A stretch of DNA of 43,865 nucleotides. It comes from a virus. Each line of letters opens with the position of its first letter. Positions within the stretch are counted from its first letter, which is position 1. The stretch covers positions 1 to 43,865 of IMG/VR virus record IMGVR_UViG_3300048759_000087. One strand, given 5' to 3'. The position numbers were made by a program, and so were the translations under genes. Positions 1,409-25,359 of the stretch are shown here, in pieces. The notes under the pieces are model-generated. The model ran no database searches. It saw nothing but the letters and a program-made list of their open reading frames with translations, and had not been told where the DNA came from.

Positions 1409-1579
1409 ATGGCTAAGCAGGACGTCATCAGCGAATACCTAGCTACGATCGGAGCCAAGGGCGGCGCCGCGCGCGTCCCAAAGGGCACATCAGCCCTCAC
1501 CCCTGAGCAACGCAAAGAGCAGGGCAGAAAGGGCGCGCTCAAACGCTGGGGGAACAAAAGAAAGAAGGCCGCCAAATGA
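1409..1579 (+). CDS. 56-residue basic protein with TPEQRxxQGRKGALKRW motif
   Basis: The ATG at 1409 opens a short frame ending TGA at 1577-1579, which overlaps the ATG of the next gene (ATGA). The first 15 residues (MAKQDVISEYLATIG) may form a helix. A Gly/Ala turn follows (KGGAARVPKG), then TPEQRKEQGRKGALKRWGNK and a Lys-rich end. The motif is shared in outline with the proteins at 354-575 and 38625-38813, a type of very small basic protein that is often repeated in genomes of soil bacteria. Function is unknown; DNA or RNA binding is only suggested by charge. No strong Shine-Dalgarno is visible. Confidence 0.6.
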   Translation: MAKQDVISEYLATIGAKGGAARVPKGTSALTPEQRKEQGRKGALKRWGNKRKKAAK

Positions 1580-1971
1580 GAGTACTCCTAGTGCTCGCCG
1601 CAGTCTGCGCGGTATTCGCCGCGGCGCCCAAGCGGGAGTGGAAACCCGGAACTATCATCGAGACTGCTCACGCTCTGCAACGCGAGCCGCCTGTGGCAAT
1701 GTTCGGCAGCCTCCCCGACCCCGCAGCCGCCGGGCCTTCCCTCTCACTCAATTTCAGCCCCACGGCTTGGCTCGGTCTGCGGATCGAGACGCCGGGCCTC
1801 GTCTACCAGGTCATGTGCGCCGCGCGAGGCGGCCACACGCCGGATGTCACGTTGCACGGCTCCGTGAAGTATGCGCTCGTGAAGGGTAAGTTCTACCTGC
1901 TCGACAACTCGGGCAAAGAATGGCAGATGACAGTGCTCGAAAAGGTCCTGCTCACGGGCGCGCAAAATTAA
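1576..1971 (+). CDS. Secreted or periplasmic small protein (Sec signal peptide)
   Basis: This 131-residue protein begins with a clear signal peptide (MRVLLVLAAVCAVFAAAPK), with likely cleavage after an Ala near residue 16-18. The mature part is about 113 residues and looks strand-rich, ending with GKFYLLDNSGKEWQMTVLEKVL, and has one Cys near residue 80. The gene is coupled to the small basic protein before it (ATGA). Its last four bases overlap the end of the convergent gene at 1968-2162. It lies outside the late operon and on the other strand, so it looks like a moron carried for the lysogen. The family was not recognised; an envelope role such as exclusion of other phages is possible but not shown. 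Confidence 0.65.
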   Translation: MRVLLVLAAVCAVFAAAPKREWKPGTIIETAHALQREPPVAMFGSLPDPAAAGPSLSLNFSPTAWLGLRIETPGLVYQVMCAARGGHTPDVTLHGSVKYALVKGKFYLLDNSGKEWQMTVLEKVLLTGAQN

Positions 1972-2162
1972 GAGCTCTCGCGCACCAGCGCCGACATCTC
2001 CGCCGCACAGACGTCTTTGCGCTTATAGGTGAGGGCCACCTCGGAGAGTATTCGCGTCTCTGACTCGAGCACGGAGTTCCGCAGCTTCAGATTCAGATAC
2101 ACGTTCACCAGTTGGCCTGCGATCGCCAAAAACGCCACCACCGCCGAAATCCACCCCGCCAT
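1968..2162 (-). CDS. 64-residue single-span membrane protein
   Basis: The ATG at 2162 is preceded by GAGGGG six bases upstream, which decides the start; longer frames to 2189 or 2267 lack this. Residues 3-24 form one hydrophobic span (WISAVVAFLAIAGQLVNVYL). A helical, coiled-coil-like segment follows (KLRNSVLESETRILSEVALTYKR) with one Cys near residue 52. It would be the last gene of the long minus operon after the 1913-residue protein, separated from it by the plus-strand Acb2-like gene. A role in lysis (small spanin or holin partner) or in exclusion is possible; no family is recognised. Confidence 0.6.
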   Translation of the reverse strand: MAGWISAVVAFLAIAGQLVNVYLNLKLRNSVLESETRILSEVALTYKRKDVCAAEMSALVRESS

Positions 2163-2199: not shown

Positions 2200-2487
2200 A
2201 TGACACCACAACAACTCTCCGAGCCTGCCGTCCCCAAGGTGGACATCACGCGCGCAACAACACTCACTCCAGCCGTCGAAGCCGCGGTGTTCGATGCCTT
2301 CGACTACCACGCGTGGACCCCGGAACAAATCGAAGCGGGCAGCCGCGTACGCCAGGTATTAGCCCAGGCCGTCTGCCAGATCATTTCTGACGTCCCACCA
2401 GGCCCCGACCGCGCCGTCGCCATACGGAAGATCCGCGAGGCGCGCATGGATGCCAACTCGGCGATCACCCACGGCGGGAAATACTAG
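2200..2487 (+). CDS. Acb2/Tad1-like hairpin-domain protein (candidate anti-CBASS/anti-Thoeris)
   Basis: This 95-residue protein has a flexible first third (to about residue 32), then a compact helical hairpin: FDYHAWTPEQIEAGSRVRQ opens helix 1, a short turn follows at SDVPPGPDR, and helix 2 ends with EARMDANSAIT. The Y-H-x-P/W-x-x-x-Q-I entry, the PxxDRxxAIxKIxEA turn and the closing M.ANxAI are the recognisable features of the Acb2/Tad1 hairpin family. Known members are phage proteins of about 90 residues. Acb2 soaks up cyclic nucleotides made by CBASS, and Tad1 soaks up the Thoeris signal. This protein would act in the cytoplasm to blunt host signalling defence. It lies on the plus strand against the late operon, and its stop TAG shares the CTAG palindrome with the stop of the convergent gene. 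Homology is likely; which signal it binds cannot be read from sequence. Confidence 0.7.
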   Translation: MTPQQLSEPAVPKVDITRATTLTPAVEAAVFDAFDYHAWTPEQIEAGSRVRQVLAQAVCQIISDVPPGPDRAVAIRKIREARMDANSAITHGGKY

Positions 2488-5400
2488 CGCTTGCCCGAAA
2501 CGATTTCATCCCAGATCGACCGATTCGCCGGCGGCTCGTACTCTTCGAGCTCGCCGTGTCTCATCCGCATGCCACCTGAGGGGACGTGCCGCGGCGCCGT
2601 TCCAGCGAAGGGAACCGTCAGAAACTCCGGCACACTGTACTGATCCGCTTTCGGACCGATCAGCATGTCCTTCCAGTTCGTCAGAGTGAGCGGAGTGGGC
2701 GCGACGCCTTTAGCCGCTTCCCAGAGTCCGCGCGCCGTCGACGCCACCGGATTCATGCCCTTCGGAATCAGCTCGCGGTGCAGGAAGTCCTCGTTGTTCG
2801 CCAGCTCCATCCCGGTCCGGATGAACGGGGCGCCCTTCCCAGCCATGAACCGGATCGGCCCCTGCACTCCGCCGTAGTCGAGCGTGTCGTGCACAAAGTT
2901 GACGACGTCGCCCCCGGCGCCCTTGAAAAACACGTTCTGGTAGATGTCTTTTCCGTCCTTGTCGTGCCCCATGTACACCTGCGTGGGATCCTTCGACAGT
3001 CTCCCGCCCAGCATTAGGCTAGTGGCCTCCGTCAGAGCGATCCCGCCCACCAGTTGGCGGATCCAGAACATACGCGCGAGCTTCCCAGCCTCTGTACCGC
3101 GTTCGAACGAGTACTTGAGATTGAACACGTTACTGATCGTCCAATCGGGCGCCAATAACAGCGCGCGCGTGACCTCGACGCTCATGTGGTTGATCCCAAG
3201 ATTCTCCCAGTTCAGCCCACCGTAGACCGCGTTAATCTCTTTACTGATCGAGCCCATGGCCGCCCGCGTCTCCATCTGCGTCGCGTTCGGGTGGTCCGCC
3301 AGCCAGGCCGCCTTATGGAGTCCGTAATCGGTGACCTTGAACTGACGCTGGATCTTGCCGAAAGTGAATTCCGTGATTTTGCCGGCGAGATGGTCGACCT
3401 CGCGCACCACCGGAGCGCTCTTCCAAATATCCCCCCAGGTCGGAATCAGCCCGGGCTCGAGCGCTTTGTACGCTTCCACCGTGCGCCCGAGCACCGAGGT
3501 GGTACCGCCGTGCCCGATGAACTCCCGCTCCGCCTTCAGGAAGTCGGCGCTATCGCGATCGGCACGTAGGCCTTGCCACCAACCCTTTGGCCCCATGTTG
3601 GCCAGAGCCATATAGTTCTCGGTGGTCACGTGGAAGAACGAGAGACCCAACTGTACGGCCTTCAGATATGCCTGCGTGTGTCGCAATTGCGCGAAGCCCG
3701 GCAACCGGTTCATGTAATCCGGATCCGTGATCGGCCGCAGAGCCTGGTCGATAACTTTGGGGACATAGAGCTGCTGCTCCGCGAGTACCTTTTCTCCCGT
3801 CACTGGGTCTACATACTCGCCATCCTGTGAGAACAAGCGAGAATGGCGCGCGGCCGCGACCCAGCCCTCCGGAATCCGGCGGTCCGAACCGGCGAACCAT
3901 TTAGCGGCGCCGTTGGCGTACCCTCCGACTCCCGGACGCCGCAGGGCCTCGATCAGTAAGTGAGTCGCGCGCGCCGTGGCGAAAGCGTCGCCGTGAATCG
4001 CAAACGCTACGAACGGGTCGAGGGTCTTCGGCTTCACATTGTCCGCGATCGCATCGAGCACGGTGGGATATTCGCGCCTCGCCGAGAACGCGTACTCCCG
4101 ACCGATCTTGCCGCCGAGCGCCTTTCCCATTCGCTCTCCGATCGGCACCGGCACCGGCGCTTCGCCCTTCGGAAATAACAGGTGGGTGAAGTACCGCTCC
4201 GAGTTCAATTCTCGAGGGATGAATCCCAACCGATGCCCCTCGGCGAATGACGCCTCAGCGATCGTGGTCAGCACCTTATCCGCATCGAGCATACGTTTCG
4301 TGGGGTGCAGCGCCTGCAGGATTGCCGGCCGCAACTCCTGGATCCGATCCATCGCAGTCTTTAGATCGGCGCCGCTGAGCGTCCGCAAATTGACGTGGGT
4401 ACCGTTGAGCCACTGCTGCAGCTCGCCGGGCCGTGTCTTGAAATCACGGTAGATGGCGATGCCCTGCCGCTCCACCGCTCCCGGCACCAGGGCCTTGAGC
4501 CGATCGAGCACCTGGTTGACGCGCGTGACCCACATGTCACGCTCGCCCGTGTAGTATTCGACCAGCCGCTGCCCGAAAGCCTTCTCCGCGGGATCGGCGG
4601 CCGCCTTCTTCACCGCGGCCAGGCCCGCGTCCCTCTTCGCCTTCAGTTCCTTTACCGCCTTGAGATCCGCCCGCAGAAATGAGTCCGCCACGCCGCCGCC
4701 GCTTTTCGCCTTGAACGAAAAACTCCCGCGCTCGTCGCCTGCGAACAGACTCAAGCTCTCCCGCTCCGCCCGCGGCAGATCCTCGGCTGCGAACAGGTTG
4801 CCGCTCTCCGGCCCTTCCTCGTCGAACAGACTCCGCGACTGCGCCGCCTTCAACTTCGAAGCCTTGACCCGCCCGCCGGATTTCATCTGAGCGGTAAGCC
4901 GATCGTGCAGCAGCGCCTCCGGAGTGAATCCGCCGGGCTCCGGCGCCGCCGGCCGCTCCGCGAAAAGATCGTCCTGCGCCTGCGCCCGCGTCTTGGCCGC
5001 AAGGTATGCTTTCCGCAGTAGCGGGCGCACAGTGTCGCCGTACTCTGCCACCATGGCCTTGACATATTCCACGAAGGCATCGCCGGCGCGGTGGATGTAG
5101 TCCCCCGCCACCAGCACCATGTCGTCGAAATCCTGCTTGCTGAAGAGTCCCTGGCCGGCTTCCGAGTCCCGCTGTGAGAAACTGCCGCGCTCGAGTCGCT
5201 TCTTTCTGGCTTTGAGGCGGGCTTTGGCTGCCTCGACGAGTTTGTCATGCTCTGCGCGCGCGGCTTCGACCTGGCGCTCGAGGTCGGACTTAGGGGATTC
5301 CGCGGCCGGCGCGGGCTGCGGTTCGACTACCGGGGCTTGATCGTGTTGCCCGGCGCGAGCTTCACTGTCCCCTGCTGGTAGGCTTCCACTAACTCGTCGA

Positions 5401-8225
5401 GCATCTCCCTCCGGAATTCCGGAGAGTTGACGGATCTGCTGCGCGAGATAGTCTCGGGTCTCTCGGTAGGCTTGCTCTTTGGCGTCATTGGCGTTTTCTC
5501 CATTGGCAAGTCGCTGCGCTGCACGGTCGAGAATGCCATCGATCGGTCCGGCTGAAGTGCTCAGCTTATCGTACAGCGAAATGCCCTGATTTGCACCCTC
5601 GGCTTTGGCCGCATTGGTACTGGTTTGGATAACGTTACCGGCCTCCCCTAAACGCTCCGCGGCCGCTTGGGAAGACACCGCCCCGAAAAGTTTCCTCTCC
5701 GCTTTCAGCTGCGACCGCACATAGTCGGAAACGATGGCCTTCTCCGGCAGCAGTGAGCGCGTCATCTCCTCTTCGCCGAACATGGAGGCCTGCGCCTGGT
5801 CCGCCGTGCTCTCTGTGATCTTCGGCGCCCGGCTGTTCATCCGGATCAACTCTTCGAGCTGATCGTTTGTAAGCCGCTTACCTCCGCGCTCCATCTTGCG
5901 GACGATGTCGTACAAGGCAATCTGGTCCGCGTGGTTGGGAACTCCCGCACCAATTACGGCGCCGCGCGCTGGCGTGAGCTCGCCCGCAGTTACATCGTCG
6001 AAGATGGGCTGCGCTAGTTTCGAGAGCGCGAATCCTTCTTTCGCGAGCTTTCCTTTCATGGCGATCCGGCCATCGGCCGCGATCTCTTCCTCGGTCATGC
6101 CGGAGTCGCGAAACACCTTCGCCGCGTCGATCGAGCTGGCCGTCTGCGAGGCCTCGGCGATATTAATAATGGCGCCCTTGAGCCGCGCCTCCTGCGCCGT
6201 CGCGGCTTTCAGGTACCGCACGCTCAGCTCGGGAACGCCCAGGCGTTGCGCCATCTCGAGGCGGTGATGCCCATTGACCACGTACGTCTTCCCGTCCGCC
6301 GGATCGAGCCACACCGAGACCGTGCCGCCCATCTCCGGGTCCCACTTCGTCACATCCCGGAAAGTCTCGCCGGCGCCGCCCTGGCCTACGTTCTGTTTGA
6401 ATTGGAATCGCACGGGGTCGGCGTGGATCTCGGACGTGGGAATATTGCCGATGAACCCCGGCCCGCGCGGTGTTACACTTTCCTGCGGTGGCGGCGGCCC
6501 CATTGAAGCATCACCCACGACGACACGGGGTGCAATCCCTCGCCCTTTTCCGTCGCCACTACTATCAGGGCTCGGGTTCCAAATCGTATCTTCGTGCGTG
6601 ATGAAATGCTGCTTACCCGGCTCGACGGCCTCCACCGCTTTCATGCCCTGCGGAGTCCATTGGTATAATTGACCCGTCGCGATTTCCTGCTCCGGATGTC
6701 CGCCGGCGATCGCGATCGCACGCCCCGACGTCACATTCAAAACCTTATCGCCCGGTTCGATGCCGGCGCGCTGCCGTGCCGCCCCGGTAATCAGGCGATC
6801 GCGCGCGGTCCGGAACGATTCCCCCGCCTCTCCTGAGTGCGGACTGACCCCCGGTTTCTTGTCGGGGTTGCGCATCAAATCGTCGATGATCGGCTGCGCA
6901 CCTGGGAGGGGCTTGCCTTCGTGCTCTCCCAGCCTCCACGGTTCCAGCCATGCGGCCGGCTTGGCCCGATCGCTGGCGATCTGCCCGGTCTGTTCGCTCC
7001 GCCGATTCGGCGCGTGGAAGACTTGCGTGTCCGGATCGACGTCGATCTTGGCGGCGTGCCTCTCTCCTTGCTTGGTGAGAGGCAGGTCCGCCGACCCCGT
7101 CACTCTCCGAGTATTCTCACCGACACTCCCGGGATGAGATTGAGGTTCACCATCGCCAGGTCCGCCTCCGCCCGGTCGCGGTAGTCCAGGTATCGGCTGC
7201 TGTCCGTCCCCTTCTCGTACAGCCGGTGGCGTCCCACCAGTTGCTCTACCTCGCGGAGCTGGGCCTGGTGCGCCCTGATTACGAGCGTCGTCACCCGCAT
7301 GGGTTACCTCCGTTTGCGCGGCGGGATGGCCTGCGGTACCGGCATCGACCGCGGCCGGTTGGTTGCCGCGTTCAGCCGGTCGAGCAGGCTGCCCGGCGGC
7401 TGCGATTGGCCGCGCTTGGGGGCTGGCCGCTTCATGCTCGGCGCTCTGGCCGGGCTTTTCTTCGGTGGGAACATTGGTGGTCTCCTTGGGTCCTTTCGCC
7501 GCGTGCGTCGCCGCAAGTCCTGCCATACCGCCCGACAGCGTGATACGAGTTAAGTCTGCACGAACGTTGGGCCAGTCCTGTTTGTTCCAGTGCTCGCGCA
7601 ACGCTGGCACCTGGTCGTAGGCACTTTTTAACATCTGCCCCGAAAAGCCGGCCGATACCAGCCGTGTTACCAGGCTCTTGCCGAGTTGCTTCTCCAGAGC
7701 CCCCAATCCTCCGGTACCTGCCATCAGCAGGAGATTCTCCGGCGTCGTCAATCCGCTGCCGAATTGCAGCGCCGCCTTGGTTACACCGGGCCCCACGTCC
7801 GGAGCCGCGGCATCGAGCTTCAGCAGGGGATTGCTGGGATCTTCCTCGCGCGCGCCGGCGGTTTCGCTGCTCATGTGAGTAGCGCGCCCGAAGGCACCCT
7901 CGCGGATCGGCGCCCAGAGGCGCTCTAAGACTCCGGGGTGATATGCCCCGATGGTCTGGTCCGGCGGCCTCGTGGCTGCCTCTGCGATCACCCTGGCGTG
8001 CTGGGTGGCATCCTGTACGACCTGGTTGGGCTGTGGGAGTTGCTGAGAAGGTTTGAGCGGTGCTTGTGCGGGCGGAGCTGCCCCGATTGTCGTCTTCGCC
8101 CCAGGAGTTGGAGTTGCAGGTTTGGCCGTAAAGTCGAAGTCCGCCGGCAGAGTATCCGGAGGTGCGGAGCTCGCGACCTGCTGTTGTTGATCGAAGAAAT
8201 CCGCCGGTAAAGTGTCGGGCCCCAT
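2484..8225 (-). CDS. Very large polyvalent internal virion protein (1913 aa)
   Basis: The ATG at 8225 has no Shine-Dalgarno; element copy c is in front. Residues 1-35 hold two PDTLPADF repeats, and 250-365 are disordered Pro/Gly/Ala-rich sequence. About 360-550 resembles the histidine phosphatase fold (DLPLTKQGERHA, GEHEGK, GES near 468), but the usual RHG is SHPG and the second catalytic His is Ser (NVTSGRA), so it is probably inactive. About 590-710 resembles the ParB/sulfiredoxin N-terminal domain (VVNGHHRLEMAQRLG). Around 1030-1085 is a segment common in phage polyvalent proteins (DYIHRAGDAFVEYVKAM). The C-terminal 700 residues are alpha-helical. Such proteins are packaged in podovirus heads and ejected into the host. 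The position after the other internal proteins fits. Enzyme activities are inference. Confidence 0.75.
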   Translation of the reverse strand: MGPDTLPADFFDQQQQVASSAPPDTLPADFDFTAKPATPTPGAKTTIGAAPPAQAPLKPSQQLPQPNQVVQDATQHARVIAEAATRPPDQTIGAYHPGVLERLWAPIREGAFGRATHMSSETAGAREEDPSNPLLKLDAAAPDVGPGVTKAALQFGSGLTTPENLLLMAGTGGLGALEKQLGKSLVTRLVSAGFSGQMLKSAYDQVPALREHWNKQDWPNVRADLTRITLSGGMAGLAATHAAKGPKETTNVPTEEKPGQSAEHEAASPQARPIAAAGQPARPAERGNQPAAVDAGTAGHPAAQTEVTHAGDDARNQGAPGPAPRGRATGGTPPAVREGDGQQPIPGLPRPGGGGPGDGEPQSHPGSVGENTRRVTGSADLPLTKQGERHAAKIDVDPDTQVFHAPNRRSEQTGQIASDRAKPAAWLEPWRLGEHEGKPLPGAQPIIDDLMRNPDKKPGVSPHSGEAGESFRTARDRLITGAARQRAGIEPGDKVLNVTSGRAIAIAGGHPEQEIATGQLYQWTPQGMKAVEAVEPGKQHFITHEDTIWNPSPDSSGDGKGRGIAPRVVVGDASMGPPPPQESVTPRGPGFIGNIPTSEIHADPVRFQFKQNVGQGGAGETFRDVTKWDPEMGGTVSVWLDPADGKTYVVNGHHRLEMAQRLGVPELSVRYLKAATAQEARLKGAIINIAEASQTASSIDAAKVFRDSGMTEEEIAADGRIAMKGKLAKEGFALSKLAQPIFDDVTAGELTPARGAVIGAGVPNHADQIALYDIVRKMERGGKRLTNDQLEELIRMNSRAPKITESTADQAQASMFGEEEMTRSLLPEKAIVSDYVRSQLKAERKLFGAVSSQAAAERLGEAGNVIQTSTNAAKAEGANQGISLYDKLSTSAGPIDGILDRAAQRLANGENANDAKEQAYRETRDYLAQQIRQLSGIPEGDARRVSGSLPAGDSEARAGQHDQAPVVEPQPAPAAESPKSDLERQVEAARAEHDKLVEAAKARLKARKKRLERGSFSQRDSEAGQGLFSKQDFDDMVLVAGDYIHRAGDAFVEYVKAMVAEYGDTVRPLLRKAYLAAKTRAQAQDDLFAERPAAPEPGGFTPEALLHDRLTAQMKSGGRVKASKLKAAQSRSLFDEEGPESGNLFAAEDLPRAERESLSLFAGDERGSFSFKAKSGGGVADSFLRADLKAVKELKAKRDAGLAAVKKAAADPAEKAFGQRLVEYYTGERDMWVTRVNQVLDRLKALVPGAVERQGIAIYRDFKTRPGELQQWLNGTHVNLRTLSGADLKTAMDRIQELRPAILQALHPTKRMLDADKVLTTIAEASFAEGHRLGFIPRELNSERYFTHLLFPKGEAPVPVPIGERMGKALGGKIGREYAFSARREYPTVLDAIADNVKPKTLDPFVAFAIHGDAFATARATHLLIEALRRPGVGGYANGAAKWFAGSDRRIPEGWVAAARHSRLFSQDGEYVDPVTGEKVLAEQQLYVPKVIDQALRPITDPDYMNRLPGFAQLRHTQAYLKAVQLGLSFFHVTTENYMALANMGPKGWWQGLRADRDSADFLKAEREFIGHGGTTSVLGRTVEAYKALEPGLIPTWGDIWKSAPVVREVDHLAGKITEFTFGKIQRQFKVTDYGLHKAAWLADHPNATQMETRAAMGSISKEINAVYGGLNWENLGINHMSVEVTRALLLAPDWTISNVFNLKYSFERGTEAGKLARMFWIRQLVGGIALTEATSLMLGGRLSKDPTQVYMGHDKDGKDIYQNVFFKGAGGDVVNFVHDTLDYGGVQGPIRFMAGKGAPFIRTGMELANNEDFLHRELIPKGMNPVASTARGLWEAAKGVAPTPLTLTNWKDMLIGPKADQYSVPEFLTVPFAGTAPRHVPSGGMRMRHGELEEYEPPANRSIWDEIVSGKR

Positions 8226-10298: not shown

Positions 10299-10779
10299 CG
10301 AATTCCTCCCTCGTGATCCCCACCGCCACCGCGTTCACCGGCTTGCCGTCGACGGTGGTGTGGTGCCGCAGAAGCCCCTCCACCTTGCCGCCGCCGCGCA
10401 GCGCTAAAGCCAGCGCGAGCCGGTTGTGTTCCGGAACCAGGCCCAAAATCTTGACTACCCCAGTCGACTCAAAAATTCGGCGGCAGGCCTGACGCGATGC
10501 CTCAGCCGCGCTGCGATGATCCCAGAATCGCCGGCTATACAAAACGTGCATGATAGCCATCGCTCCGGAAATCTCAAAGAGCAGAGCCCCTCCGATCTGC
10601 CCGTCTTTCAGCGCCGCGAAAGTCCGCCAGGACCCTGCCACCCTACTGTGTAATTCGACAAATTCTTCCGGCGTCTTCGGCGAAAAGTCGTCGCATACCA
10701 TGTGCCGGTGTTTTTCGAGCCAGGCCCAAGCCATGGGCCAGGCGTAAGGGGGGAACGGCTCGATTATTTCGATGGGCAT
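9949..10779 (-). CDS. GNAT-like acetyltransferase-type virion module protein, with overlapping 3' extension
   Basis: Residues 1-162 look like a compact GNAT-type fold: strands at FAALKDGQIGGALLFEI and IMHVLYSRRFW, a helix AAEASRQACRRIFES, then a pairing strand KILGLVPEHNRLALALALR with the pattern of the GNAT cofactor-binding and C-terminal region. The end VAVGITREEFDGI is typical for phage members. Podoviruses of the T7 type also keep such a gene among internal virion genes. After residue 162 the frame runs another 114 codons over the next gene and is Arg/Glu-rich, unlike a folded domain. Either the stop was lost or the tail is a true overlap. The start at 10779 lacks a Shine-Dalgarno and is preceded by element copy d. 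Confidence 0.6.
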   Translation of the reverse strand: MPIEIIEPFPPYAWPMAWAWLEKHRHMVCDDFSPKTPEEFVELHSRVAGSWRTFAALKDGQIGGALLFEISGAMAIMHVLYSRRFWDHRSAAEASRQACRRIFESTGVVKILGLVPEHNRLALALALRGGGKVEGLLRHHTTVDGKPVNAVAVGITREEFDGIRDGQQHAKRHANERDAELGGLEHELVQHGPVEPPKPADAGIRVDAAGDGERGTLPECAEHGDGQRQPDQRKLAKRGHADEPVPGGQRIRKVGNHGRSGRANPTRPRKRAGSKR

Positions 10780-10796: not shown

Positions 10797-11651
10797 CTAC
10801 ACGTTGTAGAACGGGAACTTGACCTTGGTCCCGTTGAAATAGCCGGCCAGGAATCCGGTGGGGTTCGAAGGCAGCGTGCCGCCGCCGGGGCTCGCCGTAC
10901 TGGCAAACTCCGGCACTAGGCGCAAAGAGGAGTTCCCGGGGCCCAGCAGATACAACTGGCCCTCGTACCCGCCGAGTGCATTCTGCCCCATCGTGAGCTG
11001 GGCCTGGCCCCCTGTCAGTAGCACGATCAGGCCGTCATTGTTGATTACTGCCTGCATCTGCACCTGGCTCGGAAGAGGCTCAAACACCAGCGTCTGCGAA
11101 GCGGGGGGCGCGAGCGTATAGAAGGTGGCACTGGCCACGGAGCCGCTTGGCGGCGAGTAGTTGTTGGCAAAGAACTGCCCCAGCGCAACCTGGACCCACC
11201 AGCCAGTCGAGGCCAATGGGGTGAGAATATTCTGGGTGGTGCTACCTGGGAGCCCTAAGAAGATTTGATTGGCGTTGCTCGTGAGTCCGAAAACCCCCAT
11301 AAAGAGGCCGGCCGGCTCGGAGGGGTTGAACAGCCACACGCCCACAGTGGCGCCCGCCAGGTTCGTCCCCAGCACGTTGGCACTGACCACGGTGTGCAGG
11401 GCTCCGGCCTGGTCCTGCCACTGCCTCTGGTAGTCAGGGGCAGTGTTTGCCAGCGTCGACGCGTCCAGAGCCGAGACGCGCGAGATCACGGGGGCCGGGC
11501 CCGAGTTCCCGGTCGACTGATTCACTACCGCCGCGGTAGCCGGCGAGCTCGCCGCGGCCACCGCTGTGTTAATCCTCCGTAGCCGATCGTTGATCGCGAG
11601 GATGAGATCCGCCAGACTCAGGCCTGACGGAATCGGAGGGATCGCGCTCAT
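10797..11651 (-). CDS. Tail-fibre or virion surface protein
   Basis: This is 284 residues. The first 40 are helical (SGLSLADLILAINDRLRRINTAVAAA) and may attach it to the tail. The rest is Ser/Thr/Gly-rich beta sequence with many hydrophobic strands (VGVWLFNPSEPAGLFMGVFGL, GYEGQLYLLG) and ends GYFNGTKVKFPFYNV, a closing strand seen in many phage tail-associated proteins. The ATG at 11651 overlaps the stop of the big tail protein (ATGA), so the two are coupled. A role in receptor contact is inferred from position and composition. No enzyme motif is visible. Confidence 0.6.
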   Translation of the reverse strand: MSAIPPIPSGLSLADLILAINDRLRRINTAVAAASSPATAAVVNQSTGNSGPAPVISRVSALDASTLANTAPDYQRQWQDQAGALHTVVSANVLGTNLAGATVGVWLFNPSEPAGLFMGVFGLTSNANQIFLGLPGSTTQNILTPLASTGWWVQVALGQFFANNYSPPSGSVASATFYTLAPPASQTLVFEPLPSQVQMQAVINNDGLIVLLTGGQAQLTMGQNALGGYEGQLYLLGPGNSSLRLVPEFASTASPGGGTLPSNPTGFLAGYFNGTKVKFPFYNV

Positions 11652-14600
11652 TTACCCTGGACCTCGAAGGGCACGTCGATCCATTGCCACAGGTCCGGAG
11701 TCTCCTCCACCGATAAAAACTTGCCCCAGATCCACTGCGCCGGATCGTTGATCGCGCTCGGCGGCGTGGGGTTCACCGGAAACGGCGCCCACTGCCAATC
11801 CGGAGGCGTGGCAGCTACCGGCATCTCGGCCATCGTGAACGCCGGCGGCGTGGCATCCACCGCCAGGTCGGCCCAGGCCGGCAGCACGTCGCTCTGCTCG
11901 AGCGGATACTCTTCCCAACTCCACTGCGCGTTAGGCTCGTTGAGCGGCCGCGTCCACACCCGCAGGTGGTAGACGCGCGCCGGACCGCCTGTGATGACGA
12001 TCCGGAACAGGCGCCCGCGCACCCCCGGAGGCAGGATGATAGTCTGCGCCTGGCGTCCGCTCGATGCCACCGACGCCTGGTAAACCCAGTTCACCGTGCC
12101 CCCGCCCTGGCTGGTGTAAACCGTCAGACTCACGGGCTGGTCGGCGCGCAGGTCGACCTCGATCCGCTTGTACATCTTCGGCCGCTCGGATTGAAAGTCG
12201 AAGTCGAGCGTATTGAAGGAGTCGCTGCCGGCCGGCGAGGTGGCCGCCAGGTATCGCCCCACCTTGAAGTGCCTGACCTGCGCTTTGTAGATGCGGAACC
12301 CGGCGCCGCCCGTGGCCACCAGGCGGATCGATCGGCCCTCCGGGTCGGAAAACGGCCCGAGTAGCGGCGGCCCAAGTAGCGGCACGGTCGCCCAGTGCCG
12401 CGAGGTGGGGCCCGTCGTGAGGGAGTAGGTTCCTTTTGAGCTGAAAACCTCGCCAGGCAGGTCCGTGTAGACGGTCACCTGGGAACTGCCGTCGCTGTCC
12501 ATCTCGAAGCGCACCTGGTCGAAGGTTTTCTCGGCCGGGCTACCGAGGTCCGCCGGCGTCGAGTCCCACACCGCCGCCGGGCTGGCCGTGGCTTCGTAGC
12601 TCTCGATGTACACCCCGATCGGACGGAAGTCGATCCGCGCGCTGAACAACTTAAACGCTCCGGAGCTCGTGATTGTCACCCGCACCAGGCGCCCGAAGAG
12701 ATAGTTGTCCGGTACCGAGCCCTGTGCCATGGGGATACGCACCCGCGTCCGCCCGGTAGTCGCGCCCTGGCTGAAGGTGGCCTGCGAGGTCATCCCGACT
12801 GTGCCGCCCAGCCGGTTCGGCAGGTCGCAATAGACGGTGACTGTGTAGGCCGCGTATGCCCAGATGTCGAGGTCGAGCTCGCGGAACTGTTTGACCTTGG
12901 GCGTGCCCAGGTCGATATCGGTGGTGTCCCACAGCGCTCCGCCCGCGGTCTCCGAGGCCTGCAGGTATTGACCGAATGCCCGCGCTTTGACGCGCGCGCC
13001 GTACAGCCGGAAGGCGTTCGTTCCGGAGATGAGCAGCTGCAGCAGCCGGCCTTCGACAAATTGCTCCGTGGCCGCGTTGACGGTCAGAGGCAGCATGACC
13101 TTCTGCCGCCCGGTGGTGCTCACGCTGCCGAATGTTTGAGTGGCCGAGATATCGCTCAGCAGTTGCACGGTCACGCTGCCGGTGGTCTCGATGTCTAACT
13201 CGAGCTCGCGGCATTCCTTCACCGCCGGCGTCCCGCCGTCCTGCGCTCGTGAGTCGTACATCGCCCCGCCGGCCGCCTCGTAGGCTTCGATGTAGAGACC
13301 GATCGGCAGCAGCTCCACCGCGGCCGAGTACAGGATGAACTTCGAAGCTCCGCCCAGCTGCAGACGGCACAGCCGCCCCTCGATCGCCGTGTTGGTTCCC
13401 TGCGGCAGAGGGATGTGCACGTATCGCCGGCCGGCCCCCGCCGTGTTGATCGTGCCTGTTTGGCGCGAGGCCTGCGCGTTCCCTGGAAGATCCGTCAAGA
13501 AGGCGTAGGTAACGTTGCCTCCGAAGGTCTCGATTTCGATGGAGAGCGTCCGGAAGCGTTTGATCGGCACCGCCGAAAGAGCCACCGCGAAGCTGCGCGG
13601 GATCTTGGTAATAGCACTCTCGAAGCTGTGCTCCATCGAGTCCCACACGAAGCCGTTGGCCGCCTCGTAGGCCTGAACGTAAGTGCCCATCTGCCGCATC
13701 AGCAGGCGCGCGGCATAGAGACGGAAGGGATTACTGTTCAGCCCGGTGAGCGCGATGCGCCACAGATAGCCCTCCGTCACGGAAAACGGGAAATTGATGG
13801 GCGAACGGCCGTAGCCTTGCGCCACCGTGAGGCTGTGCTGTACCGCCAGCTGGTTGCTGGGCAGGTCGGAATAGAGATTGACGGACACCGGTCCGCGCGA
13901 GGCGTCGATGTCGAGCTGCAGCTCCTTGCACTGTTTCACCTTGGGACTGCCCAGGTCGACCGGAATGGTGCTCGCCGACATCGCCAGGCGCGCTTCCTCG
14001 TAGTAATACAGATAAACGTTGTGGAGGACGATGCCGAAGTTGGACTGGCAATCGATCGCCACCGAAATATTCTTGGCCAGCACACCGTCCTGCCCGAGCG
14101 GGAATGAGACCTGCGCCCGAGACGTGCCCGCGGGCAGCTGCCCTATGCTCGTGAGCGCCCGCGTGCCGCCGTCGTAGGCCACCCACACCGTGGCGTTGTC
14201 GCCGGCGGGCTCCCAGTCGATCACCACCTCGAGCCAGTTTTTCTGATTGTCGGGCGCGCCCACGTCTTCGAAGTGCGACTGCCACACGCACTCGATCGCG
14301 GCATTGATGGAATCCTGGGTATAGTGCCCCTGGAAGTCGTCGAGCGAAAACAGAAAGAACGAGTTGCCGTCGCCGGTCAGGCCCACCATGTTGACGCCAT
14401 CGAACACGAAACCTTTGAACCCCACCAGGTCGCCGGCGTCCGATGCGGTGCGGTGGTAGAACCACTTGCCGCTCGCCTCATGCATGACCAGCATCGGGCA
14501 GTGGGTTTGCGCGATGGAGCTCTCCTCCATGAATGCCACGTACAGCTTACCCATGGCGTAGCCCAGCGCCACGCCGTAGCAGTTGAGCGAGTTCGAAAAG

Positions 14601-15889
14601 TAGTTCGGGCCCGGCGCGATCGATCCCAGGCGCGTGAGAGGCCCCGCGTTCTGGTAGGTGGTGTCGAACAGCGGCCGGATCGGGTCGGTGATGTCGGTCG
14701 CGCGGTCCAGGTCGAATTTGTAGAGGCCGTTGGGCGCGACGAAATAATCGTGCTGCCCGGCCGACGTCACCGCAAACGCGCTCACCAGGCCGACGCCTTC
14801 CACCACCTGCTCGAGCGTGCCCGTGTCCGGATCTCCCACCAGGCGCCAGATCGATCGCTCTTTGTAGATCACCAGCACGTTGGTGTGCATGGTGCACCAC
14901 ACGATCGCCTCTCCATCGGAGCCCACGTCGACCCAGTTGCCCACCGCCGGGTCCGATGCGCCCGGCCAGTACACCTCATCCGGATCAGTCCACCACAGGC
15001 GATTGGGATTGGTGAGCGTATTACACGCGATCAGCCGCGCAAAGTAAGGCCCCACCATCACCGCCGCGGGCGGCGGCGGATCGTTCTGGATGGGCATGAC
15101 GATGCCCTCGTCGGTAGCCGAAAGATCGTTCCACGGCGCCAGCAGGGCGGATCCGGGAGTCGCCGTCTGGTCGGCTAGGTTGAACGCGGCCGACGTCGTC
15201 GTATTGTCGTTGATCGCGCCGACGAGGTAGGGCTGCCCCAGCGTCCCTCCGGTGGCGTAGATGTTCCGGATGCCGACATTCGCCGCGGTGCTGATCGGTA
15301 TGTTTGTGAGAATGACGTCCTGGCCGCTCAACACCACAGGCGCCGAAACCGGTCCCGGATTGGTCTCCTGGCTCTCGTCGGTAGTTTCGTAGGTGACGTA
15401 GAACTGGTAGGTGCCGTTCGGTCCGCTGGCGTCCGCCGTCCCCGCGGCCGCTTTGAGTGCCGTGGTGGGAGGCGAAAGGACCGTCCAGGGCTGATAGCCG
15501 AGCGCCGGCGTGTGCTTCCCCTGCGCCCCCTGGTTCATGAAATACATGGCGCCGTCGAACGGCACCATGCCCACGCGGTTGCCGTCGTAGCCGCCGGCTA
15601 TATAACTGAAGTTGCCGCCGGCGAACCAGAGCCCACCCCCGCCCTGGGGCAGGTTGGCGGCCACGTACCAGTTGCCCTCGACGCCCCCGTAAATCGCCGC
15701 CGAGTGCGCAAACGTCGCGCCGGCGTAATTGCCCTTGAGGGAGTAGCCGAACCTGGTCACCAGCCGGCCAAGGCGATCGACCCGCCAGTTCTGCGCCAGC
15801 AGATAGTCGGTGATCGGGATCTTGTCGACCGGTGGTAGCAGGTTCAGGCTGCCGCCCAATATCTGGATTTCTTTTCGCTGGTACCCCAC
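11648..15889 (-). CDS. Large tail protein: propeller-like N-terminus plus tandem beta-sandwich repeats
   Basis: The proposed start is the GTG at 15889 (1413 aa). The frame runs on to 16024, but the extra 45 codons are Arg-rich, overlap the region upstream of the methylase, and include element copy e. Residues 1-600 are beta-rich with the style of podovirus tail-knob/DNA-stabilisation proteins (ITDYLLAQNWRVDRLGRL, NRLWWTDPDEVYWPGAS, YFVAPNGLYKFDLDR). From about 640 to 1350 six or so modules of about 130 residues recur. Each opens with a G.Y[IL]EAYEAAGG-type strand, continues with D.G.P.VK..REL.LDI, VTV..YSDLP and GRL.RL.I, and closes with an FRLY.ARV strand. The end is Trp/Pro-rich. It likely forms the tail hub and carries host-binding modules. 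Confidence 0.7.
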   Translation of the reverse strand: MGYQRKEIQILGGSLNLLPPVDKIPITDYLLAQNWRVDRLGRLVTRFGYSLKGNYAGATFAHSAAIYGGVEGNWYVAANLPQGGGGLWFAGGNFSYIAGGYDGNRVGMVPFDGAMYFMNQGAQGKHTPALGYQPWTVLSPPTTALKAAAGTADASGPNGTYQFYVTYETTDESQETNPGPVSAPVVLSGQDVILTNIPISTAANVGIRNIYATGGTLGQPYLVGAINDNTTTSAAFNLADQTATPGSALLAPWNDLSATDEGIVMPIQNDPPPPAAVMVGPYFARLIACNTLTNPNRLWWTDPDEVYWPGASDPAVGNWVDVGSDGEAIVWCTMHTNVLVIYKERSIWRLVGDPDTGTLEQVVEGVGLVSAFAVTSAGQHDYFVAPNGLYKFDLDRATDITDPIRPLFDTTYQNAGPLTRLGSIAPGPNYFSNSLNCYGVALGYAMGKLYVAFMEESSIAQTHCPMLVMHEASGKWFYHRTASDAGDLVGFKGFVFDGVNMVGLTGDGNSFFLFSLDDFQGHYTQDSINAAIECVWQSHFEDVGAPDNQKNWLEVVIDWEPAGDNATVWVAYDGGTRALTSIGQLPAGTSRAQVSFPLGQDGVLAKNISVAIDCQSNFGIVLHNVYLYYYEEARLAMSASTIPVDLGSPKVKQCKELQLDIDASRGPVSVNLYSDLPSNQLAVQHSLTVAQGYGRSPINFPFSVTEGYLWRIALTGLNSNPFRLYAARLLMRQMGTYVQAYEAANGFVWDSMEHSFESAITKIPRSFAVALSAVPIKRFRTLSIEIETFGGNVTYAFLTDLPGNAQASRQTGTINTAGAGRRYVHIPLPQGTNTAIEGRLCRLQLGGASKFILYSAAVELLPIGLYIEAYEAAGGAMYDSRAQDGGTPAVKECRELELDIETTGSVTVQLLSDISATQTFGSVSTTGRQKVMLPLTVNAATEQFVEGRLLQLLISGTNAFRLYGARVKARAFGQYLQASETAGGALWDTTDIDLGTPKVKQFRELDLDIWAYAAYTVTVYCDLPNRLGGTVGMTSQATFSQGATTGRTRVRIPMAQGSVPDNYLFGRLVRVTITSSGAFKLFSARIDFRPIGVYIESYEATASPAAVWDSTPADLGSPAEKTFDQVRFEMDSDGSSQVTVYTDLPGEVFSSKGTYSLTTGPTSRHWATVPLLGPPLLGPFSDPEGRSIRLVATGGAGFRIYKAQVRHFKVGRYLAATSPAGSDSFNTLDFDFQSERPKMYKRIEVDLRADQPVSLTVYTSQGGGTVNWVYQASVASSGRQAQTIILPPGVRGRLFRIVITGGPARVYHLRVWTRPLNEPNAQWSWEEYPLEQSDVLPAWADLAVDATPPAFTMAEMPVAATPPDWQWAPFPVNPTPPSAINDPAQWIWGKFLSVEETPDLWQWIDVPFEVQGK

Positions 15890-15894
15890 TGCGG

Positions 15895-15905
15895 GGTTAT
15901 TCGCC
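15895..15905 (-). promoter_or_regulatory. Recurrent element, copy e
   Basis: The minus strand reads GGCGAATAACC followed by CCGCA and the proposed GTG start at 15889. No Shine-Dalgarno is present. Its spacing matches copy f and supports the GTG over the longer frame. Confidence 0.5.
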
Positions 15906-16043
15906 GGGGGCGGTCTCCGGAGGCTGTTGCGCAGCGTCCACTTGGCGATTGATCTCCTACGCGATCGCGATCGAGACGCCGCCCGAAGCGAAGGGTCTTT
16001 CGGCGGCCTTGACTTTCTCGGCAAAGTCGCCGATGCTCGAGCT

Positions 16044-16865
16044 ATGGGCTACCCAGGAGGAAAGTCCGGGCCCGGCGTCTACCATCGTTTGATCAACCTG
16101 ATGCCGCCCCACCGGACCTATATCGAGGCCTTCCTCGGCGGCGGCGCAGTGATGCGGCTGAAGCGGCCGGCGGATTACAACATCGGCATAGACCTGGACG
16201 TCGGCGTGATCGAGCGATGGCGATCGCACCAAGGCGAATCCGCCGATTTCTCCGGGAACATCGGCGTTCCTGCAGGAACGGTGAAAGCGCCGCTGGCCGT
16301 TCGCGGAGAATCCGCCGATCCGCGCCGGCGCCGCTCGGCTGTCTCGCCGATTGCGGATCCGCGCCGCTTCCGCTTCCTGCGCGGCGACGCGCTCACATTT
16401 CTTGCCTCCTACCCCCTGGGCCCTGACGATCTCATCTACCTCGATCCGCCCTACCTGATGGAAACGCGTTCCTCTGGCCGTCTCTACAACCACGAATTCA
16501 GCGACGCCCAACACGCCGAGTTGCTGTCGACCATCGGCGGCCTGCCCTGTAGGATCCTGGTTTCCGGGTATTGGTCGGAGATGTACGCCGAAGCGCTCCG
16601 GAGCTGGACCTCCATTCACTTCGAAGCCATGACGCGCGGCGGGATGGCTACAGAGTGGGTGTGGTTCAATTTCGAACCTCCCACCGTCCTGCACGACTAT
16701 AGGTATCTCGGCGACGACTTCCGCAAGAGACAGGATCTCAAGCGCCAGGTGGCCAGCTGGACCCGCAAGCTGCGCGACATGCCCACCCTGAAAAGGCAGG
16801 CGCTGCTCTCCGCGGTCGCCAGCCTCGGCAACGGCGACGATACCACCAGGTCGGTCGACTATTGA
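16044..16865 (+). CDS. DNA adenine-N6 methylase, Dam/D12 class
   Basis: This is 273 residues from the ATG at 16044; the open frame begins at 15810 but its first part is Arg-rich and non-homologous. The AdoMet site is YPGGKS near residue 3 and FLGGGAV near 29. The catalytic motif IV is LIYLDPPYL near residue 130. The middle (ILVSGYWSEMYAEAL) and the WVWFN strand also fit the family. It transfers a methyl group to adenine N6 in a short target, perhaps to protect phage DNA or alter gene control. It sits alone on the plus strand inside the minus tail operon and ends seven bases into the convergent neighbour. A 45-residue, repeat-rich, palindrome-rich insertion splits the AdoMet and catalytic halves. 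There is no strong Shine-Dalgarno. Confidence 0.85.
   Translation: MGYPGGKSGPGVYHRLINLMPPHRTYIEAFLGGGAVMRLKRPADYNIGIDLDVGVIERWRSHQGESADFSGNIGVPAGTVKAPLAVRGESADPRRRRSAVSPIADPRRFRFLRGDALTFLASYPLGPDDLIYLDPPYLMETRSSGRLYNHEFSDAQHAELLSTIGGLPCRILVSGYWSEMYAEALRSWTSIHFEAMTRGGMATEWVWFNFEPPTVLHDYRYLGDDFRKRQDLKRQVASWTRKLRDMPTLKRQALLSAVASLGNGDDTTRSVDY
16233..16372 (+). repeat. Palindrome-rich in-frame insertion within the adenine methylase
   Basis: GAATCCGCCGAT occurs at 16236-16247 and again at 16308-16319, 72 bases apart and in frame. Hairpin arms GCCGAT/ATCGGC lie at 16242-16247 and 16260-16265. Perfect palindromes are GTTCCTGCAGGAAC (16266-16279), GCGCCGGCGC (16322-16331) and GCGGATCCGC (16353-16362). 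It encodes a charged, Ser/Ala/Arg-rich linker between conserved methylase parts. Confidence 0.55.
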
Positions 16866-17548
16866 CCTGCGCCCCACAAGTGCTCAACGATCTGCCCGTA
16901 CAGATCGCACCGCGATTGGAAGTGGGCCGCCATGTCCGGCATCGCCGCCTCCGATTCCTTCCCCCTCGCCCCCGCCAGCATGCAGTAACTGAAGTAGTCC
17001 TGCAAAACCACGGATAGCGGTACCAGGGTGAAGCCTTGGCTGATCCCCGGGCTCGGGAACTCCTGGCAGACCTGGCCGAGCGTTCCCCCTGATCCCGCGA
17101 TCGGGACCGGATAGAGCGTGATCGTCCCCACGCCGCCGGCGTCGAGCGAACAACGATTGGGGCTCCCTGTCGTCGTCGGCCAGTTGGCATCGAGCGCCCA
17201 CAAATTCCGCACCGCGGTAGGACGTAGGAGCTGGGGCGCGCCTGTGGTCCCGTCGATGAGCACAGCCAGCACCGTGAAGACGTGAGTCGCCGGCAGCGCG
17301 TAGACCGCCGTGCCAGGCGTCACACTGACGCTGGTGTCGTAGTTTTGAAAGACCCCGCTTTCGTACGCAATCTTCTTGGCCCCATCGTCGGCGAACTGGT
17401 ACAGCTCCGCCACGTTGGTGTAGGCCTCGGCATCGGAGATCAAGTCCGACAGGCTTGCGAACCCCAGCCGGTACGCCACGTCCGCGAGCGACTTGGAGAC
17501 GTCGAGCGTGTAGTTCGCAGACGCGCCGGTGAAAAGCAGGAGAAGCAT
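16859..17548 (-). CDS. Head-tail adaptor / tail-tube-type protein (second copy type)
   Basis: This is 229 residues from the ATG at 17548, nine bases after the stop of the upstream gene with GAGAG just before. The N-terminus is helical (DVSKSLADVAYRLGFASLSDLISDAEAYTNVA), followed by a strand pair around VTPGTAVYALPATHVFTVLAVLI and TITLYPVPIAGSG. A C-terminal helical part follows (VLQDYFSYCMLAGARGKESEA, AHFQSRCDLYGQIVEHL). This helix-sandwich-helix order is that of podovirus adaptor proteins that sit under the portal. It resembles in layout the proteins at 18856-19572 and 19575-20552. Which ring position each fills cannot be told. Confidence 0.6.
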   Translation of the reverse strand: MLLLLFTGASANYTLDVSKSLADVAYRLGFASLSDLISDAEAYTNVAELYQFADDGAKKIAYESGVFQNYDTSVSVTPGTAVYALPATHVFTVLAVLIDGTTGAPQLLRPTAVRNLWALDANWPTTTGSPNRCSLDAGGVGTITLYPVPIAGSGGTLGQVCQEFPSPGISQGFTLVPLSVVLQDYFSYCMLAGARGKESEAAMPDMAAHFQSRCDLYGQIVEHLWGAGQ

Positions 17549-17556
17549 TGGACTCT

Positions 17557-18852
17557 CTACCCGTCGTAGCCCCACGCGGTAATCAGGCAGGTGACCGTGC
17601 CTGTGCCGGTGATGTCGGCCTTGAGGACGTTATTAATCCCACTGGATGGTATCGGGCGAGAGGGAGTGACCACGTACGTACCCTGGCCGAGCGCCTGGAA
17701 GACGACGTTGGCGGCAGCGTTTGTGTTGTCATAGATCGTCACTGTATAGGTGCCGCTGCCCTGGATGCAGATGACCAGGCCTTCGATGCAATAGCCTTTC
17801 CCGGAGGCCGGGGTGTGGATCGCGTTCCCGGTGGTGATCGCAGAGATGCTGATTCCGGACTTCCAGGCGGACGCGGCCCCGGGGTTGTACCCGATATTCT
17901 GTGTGGTCATGGAGGGCGAGTTCCACGTAAGCCACGGATAGGGGCCATTGGCAAGGCCGTCGTTTCCGTTCCCCTGGTTCAGGACGCTGGTAAAGTACAC
18001 CGGAATGCTGCCCGCCGCGCTGGCAATCTGCAGCGGATTGGTCGACGTGCCCAGTTCCGTGCCGTCATTGCGCCGCAGATTGATGTGCAGCGCGCGAAAT
18101 CCCGTGATCCTCGCCGCCGCCGTCTGCCCGCTTCCCGGAGAGGCGATGGAGTCGTTGTACACTCCGCCGAACACGTCGGTGGGAGTGGTGCCCGCCGCGA
18201 ACGCCGAGCCGTCTGCCTGCGAGAATCCGCCGCCCACCTGCGCCAGCACTTTCACCGGCAGCGCGTAAACCGAGCTCACGTTCTGCATGGCCAGCACGTT
18301 GGTGCCGTCCGTCACTTTGATCGGCCAGGCGTTAGACGTGGCCGCCGGCGTCCCCTGGTTGTCCGTTACCGTGCCCGTGATGGTCGACGTGCCCGTGATC
18401 GAGACCGAGCCCGCGACCGTTACCGGGTTGGTGATGGTGGCGACCGTGCCGACGTTCCACGTCCCCGACTGCACCACCGAGGGCGTGCCCGAGATGGCCA
18501 CCGTACCCGTCACAGTCACCGCGTTGGTGATGGTGGCCACCGTGCCGATGTTCCAGGTGCCAGCCTGGTTCACCGAGGGAGCATTGCTGATTGTGACGGC
18601 GCCGGCGACGGTTGCCGTCCCGACTACCGCGACATTGAGATTCTGCGCGGTAACGTTGGTGATGGGGATGGAAGTCGCCGTACACGTGCCGATGTTGACC
18701 AGCAGGCCGGTACTCGCCGACGCCGGCACCAGGTTGTTCGATCCCAGGACCGACTCGGCGATCTTGATCACCTGCATGTCGCCGCCGCTCGACGTATCGA
18801 CCGTGATATTTGTGCCGCTGCCCTGCGTGATTGCAACCGTCGAAATAGCCAT
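17557..18852 (-). CDS. Beta-repeat virion protein, tail-spike or fibre type
   Basis: This is 431 residues with GGAGG before the ATG at 18852. Residues 60-165 consist of short Thr/Val/Gly repeats; GTWNIGTVATITN and GTWNVGTVATITN are two near-copies about 42 residues apart, each followed by VTVxG. This suggests a beta-helix or stacked fibre. The C-terminal half is a globular beta domain (GKGYCIEGLVICIQGSG, VTIYDNTNAAANVVFQ). It lies between two adaptor-type genes. A surface-exposed or structural role is likely; no enzyme motif is seen. Confidence 0.6.
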   Translation of the reverse strand: MAISTVAITQGSGTNITVDTSSGGDMQVIKIAESVLGSNNLVPASASTGLLVNIGTCTATSIPITNVTAQNLNVAVVGTATVAGAVTISNAPSVNQAGTWNIGTVATITNAVTVTGTVAISGTPSVVQSGTWNVGTVATITNPVTVAGSVSITGTSTITGTVTDNQGTPAATSNAWPIKVTDGTNVLAMQNVSSVYALPVKVLAQVGGGFSQADGSAFAAGTTPTDVFGGVYNDSIASPGSGQTAAARITGFRALHINLRRNDGTELGTSTNPLQIASAAGSIPVYFTSVLNQGNGNDGLANGPYPWLTWNSPSMTTQNIGYNPGAASAWKSGISISAITTGNAIHTPASGKGYCIEGLVICIQGSGTYTVTIYDNTNAAANVVFQALGQGTYVVTPSRPIPSSGINNVLKADITGTGTVTCLITAWGYDG

Positions 18853-24786: not shown

Positions 24787-25359
24787 CTAGACGCCCACCG
24801 AACCCTGAGCGAACTGGTGCTTGTTGATCAGGCACTCGACAATCGCGTTGGTGCCTTCCAGGTTCGGCGTGATCATCGACACGCGCGTCAACCTCAGATC
24901 GAGGGTCGCGGTGGTCGCAATGCCGGTGGTGTTCACGGTCATGCCCGACTGTTTGGTCGACAGGCTCCCCGTGTTGTAAGCGATATTGATGTTGGCGTTT
25001 TTGCCGATGTACGAGGCAGTCGTCATCGGATTGGTGGCGTCGCACATCGCCATGTAGATGACATCCTGCTCATCGGTCACCATGTGCACGGTGAGAGTCG
25101 AGAGTAGGCCGTAGTTGAGCGCAGCCCCCAGCCAGAGCGTAGTCCCCGGCGTGCCGTTGTATCCGGTCTGGCAGGTCGGGACGTTGTACCCGATAGGAGA
25201 CTCGGGGATCGCGACCGCGCCGGTGACTTTCTGGACGATGTCGAAAGCGAAGAGCGTATGCGTGTCGGTTGCGGGCTTGCCGTATTCCGTGCAACTGAAC
25301 GGCGCGCCGCCGAAACGACTGATCGGCCGGAAGCCGAACGGGTTGTTAGGATTTGCCAC
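24787..25359 (-). CDS. Head cement/decoration-type protein
   Basis: This is 190 residues with a GTG start at 25359 and GGGGGG about nine bases upstream. The N-terminus (ANPNNPFGFRPISRFGG) is the recognisable beginning of a family of small phage head proteins that lie next to the capsid gene in many podoviruses. The rest is a beta-sandwich-like sequence (LFAFDIVQKVTGAVAIPE, TLTVHMVTDEQDVIYMAM, ATLDLRLTRVSMI). It probably stabilises the shell after expansion. Transcription may start at the sigma28-like promoter just upstream (25384-25412). Confidence 0.7.
   Translation of the reverse strand: MANPNNPFGFRPISRFGGAPFSCTEYGKPATDTHTLFAFDIVQKVTGAVAIPESPIGYNVPTCQTGYNGTPGTTLWLGAALNYGLLSTLTVHMVTDEQDVIYMAMCDATNPMTTASYIGKNANINIAYNTGSLSTKQSGMTVNTTGIATTATLDLRLTRVSMITPNLEGTNAIVECLINKHQFAQGSVGV

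What the first reader, a model, noticed from the sequence alone, without database searches (positions are those of the whole stretch)
2200..2487. Acb2/Tad1-like anti-defence protein in a moron position
The DYHAWTPEQI opening, PPGPDRxxAIRKIREA turn and MDANSAI close fit the Acb2/Tad1 hairpin family (established: sequester CBASS or Thoeris signals). It lies on the plus strand against the late operon, with a shared CTAG stop. This suggests independent expression early in infection or in the lysogen. A phage of this lineage with such a protein would broaden the known range of the family.
Basis: partly seen in the sequence, partly recalled or inferred. Interest (0 to 1): 0.68.

Follow-up and report, generated by a model that had tools for sequence, protein, structure and literature searches.

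The report
Mobile phage sponge protein, Acb2 branch
This small gene of an uncultured soil phage belongs to the Acb2 family of viral proteins that soak up bacterial alarm molecules; it belongs to a distinct branch with altered likely binding-site residues, and it occupies different genome positions in related phages.

Summary
The ORF at 2200-2487 (+, 95 aa) is real, under purifying selection, and a member of the Acb2/Tad1-hairpin family. It passes Pfam PF24729 (28.6 bits, cut-off 27), and all 15 aligned relatives match that model. AlphaFold gives a short N-terminal helix plus a two-helix hairpin, the Acb2 layout; Tad1's N-terminal beta-sheet is absent. Nearly all of the best 18 BFVD structure matches are Acb2/Tad1-hairpin proteins.

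First, the gene is a single-gene moron that occurs at different positions. In phages sharing this structural module it sits in at least five different slots, on either strand. One slot holds a DNA methyltransferase in the window. It also occurs in an unrelated tail operon.

Second, it belongs to a well-supported clade (37 distinct sequences) on a long stem, inside a larger branch where the conserved helix-2 Thr (T68 in T4 Acb2) is Arg. The base-stacking Tyr (T4 Y8) is kept, but R82, D84 and a C-terminal GKY are newly fixed. I infer a nucleotide-signal sponge with a re-tuned pocket. Ligand, oligomer and expression timing are untested. Hosts are probably Bryobacteraceae (Acidobacteriota); 18 of 121 genomes of that group carry a CBASS cyclase domain.

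The parts
2200..2487 (+). Acb2-family sponge-like gene, 95 aa (P0001); alternative GTG start at 2239
2302..2469 (+). Acb2_Tad1_hairpin domain (residues 35-90), two antiparallel helices 41-64 and 69-90
   Evidence: Pfam PF24729; AlphaFold2 mean pLDDT 89
2305..2307 (+). codon of Tyr36, equivalent of T4 Acb2 Tyr8 (needed for cyclic dinucleotide binding in T4 Acb2)
   Evidence: Y in 37/37 relatives; T4 Y8A described in PMC12657218 and PMC12657230
2395..2484 (+). near-invariant C-terminal block PPGPDRAVAIRKIREARMDANSAITHGGKY (residues 66-95), including Arg76 (Thr68 in T4), Arg82, Asp84 (Trp76 in T4)
2484..2487 (.). CTAG shared by the two convergent stop codons
2187..2192 (+). weak -10-like CATACT 7 nt before the ATG; could give a leaderless transcript (speculative)
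   Evidence: sequence; the 37-bp intergenic stretch is well conserved in L001; no consensus promoter found
1968..2162 (-). divergent small gene on the left flank of the slot (one hydrophobic stretch), conserved in L001
2484..8225 (-). 1913-aa late gene on the right flank of the slot; part matches PHROG 21
15996..16865 (+). DNA methyltransferase gene occupying the slot that holds the sponge gene in L004 and L020 (ORF opens at 15810)

Best explanation
The gene encodes a small phage sponge of the Acb2 family. By analogy with Acb2, copies of the helical-hairpin protein assemble (probably into a hexamer) and bind a nucleotide immune signal made by the infected cell in pockets between protomers, lined by Tyr36 and the second helix. 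The signal is trapped without being cut, and the downstream killer protein stays off. The gene travels as a stand-alone moron that recombines into different gaps of phage genomes. Its clade has re-tuned the pocket side of helix 2 (Thr to Arg76, aromatic to Asp84, new Arg82, conserved C-terminal GKY), so its preferred signal probably differs from the cyclic dinucleotides bound by T4 and PaMx33 Acb2; an ADP-ribose-type or other cyclic nucleotide signal is possible. Shown here: family membership, predicted fold, mobility between slots, clade-specific fixed residues, purifying selection. Inferred: oligomer, ligand binding, anti-defence role, specificity shift, expression timing.
For: PF24729 above cut-off, matched by all 15 members of A1. 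A graded series within the same model: T4 Vs.4 71 bits, intermediates 62.6 and 44.6, the sequence of 9ptq 36.5, window 28.6. hhalign E = 1.5e-12 against canonical members. Model: short helix 24-34 and hairpin 41-64/69-90, pLDDT 89. Nearly all of the top 18 BFVD hits are Acb2/Tad1-hairpin proteins, Foldseek probability 0.97-1.00. In the PDB second look 9ptq (Acb2 homolog 43 with 3'cADPR) aligns at 1.6 A over 60 residues. Tyr36 37/37; Arg76, Arg82, Asp84 37/37 against Thr 16/18 and mostly aromatics in canonical members. Clade support 100/100 on a stem of 2.92 changes per column, Arg branch 99/96. Slot map. In T4 Acb2, Y8A and F82C disrupt function, and T68M is described as lowering affinity (PMC12657218, PMC12657230).
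Against: No ligand, oligomer or anti-defence test exists for this clade. The Pfam score is only just above the cut-off, and PDB Z-scores of about 7 are matched by unrelated helical hairpins. T4 Phe82, which stacks on the base, is Thr90 here, and the canonical Thr is replaced, so binding of the usual signals cannot be assumed. The host genome is not held, so co-occurrence with CBASS or Thoeris could not be tested for this phage.
Confidence: 0.72

Rival explanations
1. A canonical Acb2 in function: it binds the same cyclic di- and trinucleotides as T4/PaMx33 Acb2, and the fixed substitutions are neutral or only structural.
For: Same family, base-stacking Tyr kept, same predicted layout; about 15% of host-family genomes (18 of 121) carry a CD-NTase domain.
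Against: Thr68 equivalent is Arg and Phe82 equivalent is Thr in every or nearly every member; long stem branch followed by near-invariance suggests a shift.
Confidence: 0.3
2. [quoted passage not shown]
For: The lowest-rmsd Acb2-family match in the PDB second look, 9ptq, was solved with 3'cADPR; ThsB-type TIR domains occur in 37 of 121 genomes of the host family, including G002, which carries a relative of the gene.
Against: 9ptq keeps the canonical Thr and lacks the Tyr, so its pocket is not the one seen here; the ThsB_TIR model has a low cut-off and also picks up large TIR proteins that need not be Thoeris.
Confidence: 0.25
3. The hairpin fold has been repurposed: this clade no longer sequesters a signal but binds a protein or nucleic acid, for example as a small regulator.
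For: Very long stem branch, strongly basic RKIREAR helix and invariant tail; some copies lie inside tail or head operons.
Against: Base-stacking Tyr and helix-2 core kept in 37/37; single-gene, slot-hopping behaviour with no recurring partner is typical of anti-defence morons.
Confidence: 0.13

Closest known systems
Acb2 (anti-CBASS 2; Pseudomonas phage PaMx33, T4 Vs.4; Pfam PF24729)
   Same: Hairpin domain above the Pfam cut-off, short N-terminal helix plus two long helices, base-stacking Tyr, phage-encoded small protein
   Different: Thr68 is Arg76, Trp76 is Asp84, Phe82 is Thr90 (T4 numbering first), extra Arg82, conserved C-terminal GKY; ligand unknown; only 28.6 bits against 71 for T4 Vs.4
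Acb2 homolog 43 (PDB 9ptq, solved with 3'cADPR)
   Same: Same hairpin, 1.6 A over 60 residues, 22% identity, 'FDxH' opening and P-x-G-R/P-E/D-K/R turn
   Different: Keeps Thr, lacks the Tyr; branch position unsure
Tunturiibacter phage Tunturi_1 gp101 and its IMG/VR relatives
   Same: Same family (44.6 bits) and the same Thr-to-Arg change; also an Acidobacteriota phage; sister set in the tree
   Different: AIRKLRECVMTANASIA signature: Thr at the Asp84 position, Val at Arg82, no GKY tail
Tad1 (CbTad1)
   Same: Shares the C-terminal helical hairpin at family level
   Different: Tad1 has an N-terminal antiparallel beta-sheet; none is predicted here

Membership tests
Acb2/Tad1 hairpin family (PF24729) | Sequence score above the curated Pfam cut-off | tested here: met
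   28.6 bits against 27; all 15 members of A1 match the model
Acb2/Tad1 hairpin family (PF24729) | Antiparallel two-helix hairpin | tested here: met
   helices 41-64 and 69-90, pLDDT mostly above 90; best BFVD matches are family members
[quoted passage not shown]
   H24-34, H41-64, H69-90, no strands
Acb2 | Structural match to solved Acb2 chains that stands above unrelated rows | tested here: inconclusive
   9ptq Z 7.4, 7uq2 7.1, 8h2x 6.5, among unrelated helical hairpins of similar Z
Acb2 | Base-stacking Tyr (T4 Tyr8) | tested here: met
   Tyr36, 37/37
Acb2 of the canonical cyclic-dinucleotide-binding type (T4-like pocket) | Helix-2 Thr (T4 Thr68) and base-stacking Phe82 or an aromatic nearby | tested here: not met
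   Arg76 37/37, Thr90 35/37; therefore not filed as this type
Acb2 | Hexamer that binds and releases intact cyclic di-/trinucleotides | not testable with these tools
   needs purified protein
Tad1 | N-terminal antiparallel beta-sheet (PMC12043709) | tested here: not met
   no strand of 3 or more residues in the model
Phage moron | Single gene present or absent, in different places in related genomes | tested here: met
   five slots among relatives of the same structural module

The most novel reading that the evidence does not exclude
The clade is a sponge with a new specificity, trapping a nucleotide or NAD-derived immune signal that canonical Acb2 does not bind well, and therefore points to a signalling defence active in Acidobacteriota that may not be described yet.
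Probability: 0.2. Interest if true: 0.75.

Novelty: new variant of a known kind. Interest (0 to 1): 0.45.

Why it matters
Sponge proteins report which alarm molecules a phage's hosts use. A widespread sponge branch with fixed changes at likely ligand-contacting positions, in phages linked to poorly studied Acidobacteriota, gives a direct handle on nucleotide signalling in that phylum. The sister branch occurs in an isolated phage with a cultured host (Tunturi_1 on Tunturiibacter), so the question can be tested. The slot map also marks places in this phage lineage where other anti-defence genes may be found.

Tried and rejected
PADLOC and NCBIfam gave no useful match. Plain phmmer against PDB sequences gave only marginal hits; the profile search put 9ptq first but not significantly. 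PDB Foldseek and VIA-align scores alone do not separate Acb2 from unrelated helical hairpins, so I rest on sequence profiles and the BFVD ranking. A conserved leaderless -10 box was considered: window, L001, L005 and L008 have -10-like sequences just before the ATG, but many relatives have a Shine-Dalgarno site instead, so it is not a family trait. A recurring partner gene was sought and not found; the only recurrent neighbours are the opposite frame of the gene itself and the tail genes of one lineage. PaP2 was searched for the solved Acb2; only a weak candidate was found and it was not used. A CBASS check of the two MAGs that carry relatives found no domain over cut-off. No paper in the held library mentions PF24729 by accession.

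Full report
What is there. The plus-strand ORF at 2200-2487 encodes 95 residues. It lies between a small minus-strand gene (1968-2162) and a 1913-codon minus-strand late gene (2484-8225), and overlaps the latter by CTAG, which serves as both stop codons. Against the nearest relative, L001, mismatches by codon position are 21, 12 and 49 of 82 codons, so the frame is a protein under purifying selection. The record is a virus contig of 43,865 bases with terminase, capsid and integrase genes; no host genome is held.

What family. Pfam PF24729 (Acb2_Tad1_hairpin) is matched at 28.6 bits, just above the curated 27. All 15 members of an alignment of relatives match the model too. The low score is explained by distance: T4 Vs.4, a proven Acb2, scores 71, intermediates 62.6 and 44.6, and the solved Acb2 homolog 43 36.5. 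A profile of the window's clade against a profile of canonical members gives 97.7% probability and E = 1.5e-12 over 74 columns. AlphaFold2 predicts helix 24-34 and the hairpin 41-64/69-90 at mean pLDDT 89, the layout reviewed for Acb2 (PMC12043709); the beta-sheet of Tad1 is not predicted. In BFVD nearly all of the best 18 matches are named Acb2/Tad1 hairpin proteins. In the PDB second look, 9ptq, an Acb2 homolog solved with 3'cADPR, aligns at 1.6 A over 60 residues, but unrelated helical hairpins reach similar Z, so this is supportive only.

A moron in several slots. Relatives were found in 50 IMG/VR loci and in contigs of Bryobacteraceae and Solibacteraceae MAGs. Mapping the window's other proteins onto these loci (DNA level) shows phages of the same structural module with the gene in at least five places: slot A, 2163-2487, antisense to the late genes (window, L001); slot B, between homologues of 11648-16024 and 16859-17575, antisense (L004, L020), where the window carries a plus-strand DNA methyltransferase; slot C, between homologues of 24787-25359 and 25412-26326, antisense (L041); slot D, next to the portal-like gene, same sense (L008, L027); slot E, between terminase and portal-like genes, same sense (L043). 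A different lineage (L022, L023, L033, L054) carries it inside what looks like a tail operon. No partner gene recurs. Caution: the L020 copy has lost its N-terminal half or its frame in that contig.

A distinct branch with altered likely binding-site residues. Aligning 37 distinct clade members, 37 proteins found with Tunturi_1 gp101 as query, and 10 known or database members: the base-stacking Tyr (T4 Tyr8) is Tyr36 in 37/37. The helix-2 Thr (T4 Thr68) is Thr in 16 of 18 canonical members but Arg in all 37 clade members and all 29 Tunturi-type proteins (the Tunturi-type set was separated from the canonical set by lacking Thr at this column, so 'all Arg' is informative but the split itself is not). 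T4 Trp76 is Asp84 in 37/37; Arg82, Gly93 and nearly always Tyr95 are specific to the clade; T4 Phe82 is Thr90 in 35/37. In T4 Acb2, Y8A and F82C disrupt nucleotide binding or function, and T68M is described as lowering affinity (PMC12657218, PMC12657230). The tree (62 columns, few for so many rows) puts the Arg proteins together (99/96) and the window clade on a stem of 2.92 changes per column (100/100). A long stem followed by near-invariance fits a change of specificity then strong constraint. That is inference.

Hosts and defences. One MAG contig (L020, Bryobacteraceae) shares a capsid gene at 85% protein identity with the window. Among 121 genomes of the family of the Solibacteraceae/Bryobacteraceae MAG G002, 18 have a CD-NTase (SMODS) domain over cut-off and 37 a ThsB-type TIR domain (the latter cut-off is low and the hits include large TIR proteins). 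The sponge itself was found in 1 of 121, G002 itself, the genome through which the group was chosen. Co-occurrence for this phage is therefore untested.

Expression. No sigma-70 consensus promoter or terminator is found at 1300-2700. A -10-like CATACT (2187-2192) lies 7 nt before the ATG in a 37-bp divergent gap that is well conserved in L001. Leaderless early expression is possible but unproven, and the same-sense copies in L008, L027 and L043 could be expressed with late genes.

Verdict. Membership in the Acb2 hairpin family: about 0.95. Sponge for some nucleotide immune signal: about 0.75. Changed specificity relative to T4 Acb2: about 0.5. The kind is known; the branch, its fixed residues and its slot-to-slot mobility are not described in the papers I could search, although that library is incomplete.

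Noticed in passing
window 15996-16865 (+): A plus-strand DNA methyltransferase (PHROG 56) sits in the late region in the slot that holds the sponge gene in L004 and L020: an anti-restriction moron exchanged for an anti-signalling one.
   Followed up: partly
window 1409-1971 (+): Two plus-strand ORFs (56 aa basic; 131 aa with a signal-peptide-like start) give no tblastn match in L001, where other plus-strand ORFs fill the same gap: a second variable slot beside the sponge.
   Followed up: partly
L035 and L037 (both ends of contig IMGVR_UViG_3300036790_000324): One 45.6-kb viral contig carries two very similar copies of the gene, one near each end, in the same direction; real duplication or assembly effect is not settled.
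   Followed up: no
L056 7980-8195 (Tunturi_1 gp101): An isolated Acidobacteriota phage carries a sister-branch member annotated only as hypothetical; the query drew 64 IMG/VR loci, so the Arg-type branch is large.
   Followed up: yes
L020 3760-3897: The copy in this Bryobacteraceae MAG contig keeps the C-terminal block but not the N-terminal half in frame: pseudogene or sequencing error.
   Followed up: no
window 10299-10779 (-): GNAT-like acetyltransferase (weak PHROG 4470 and Pfam PF13302 matches) inside the late operon.
   Followed up: no
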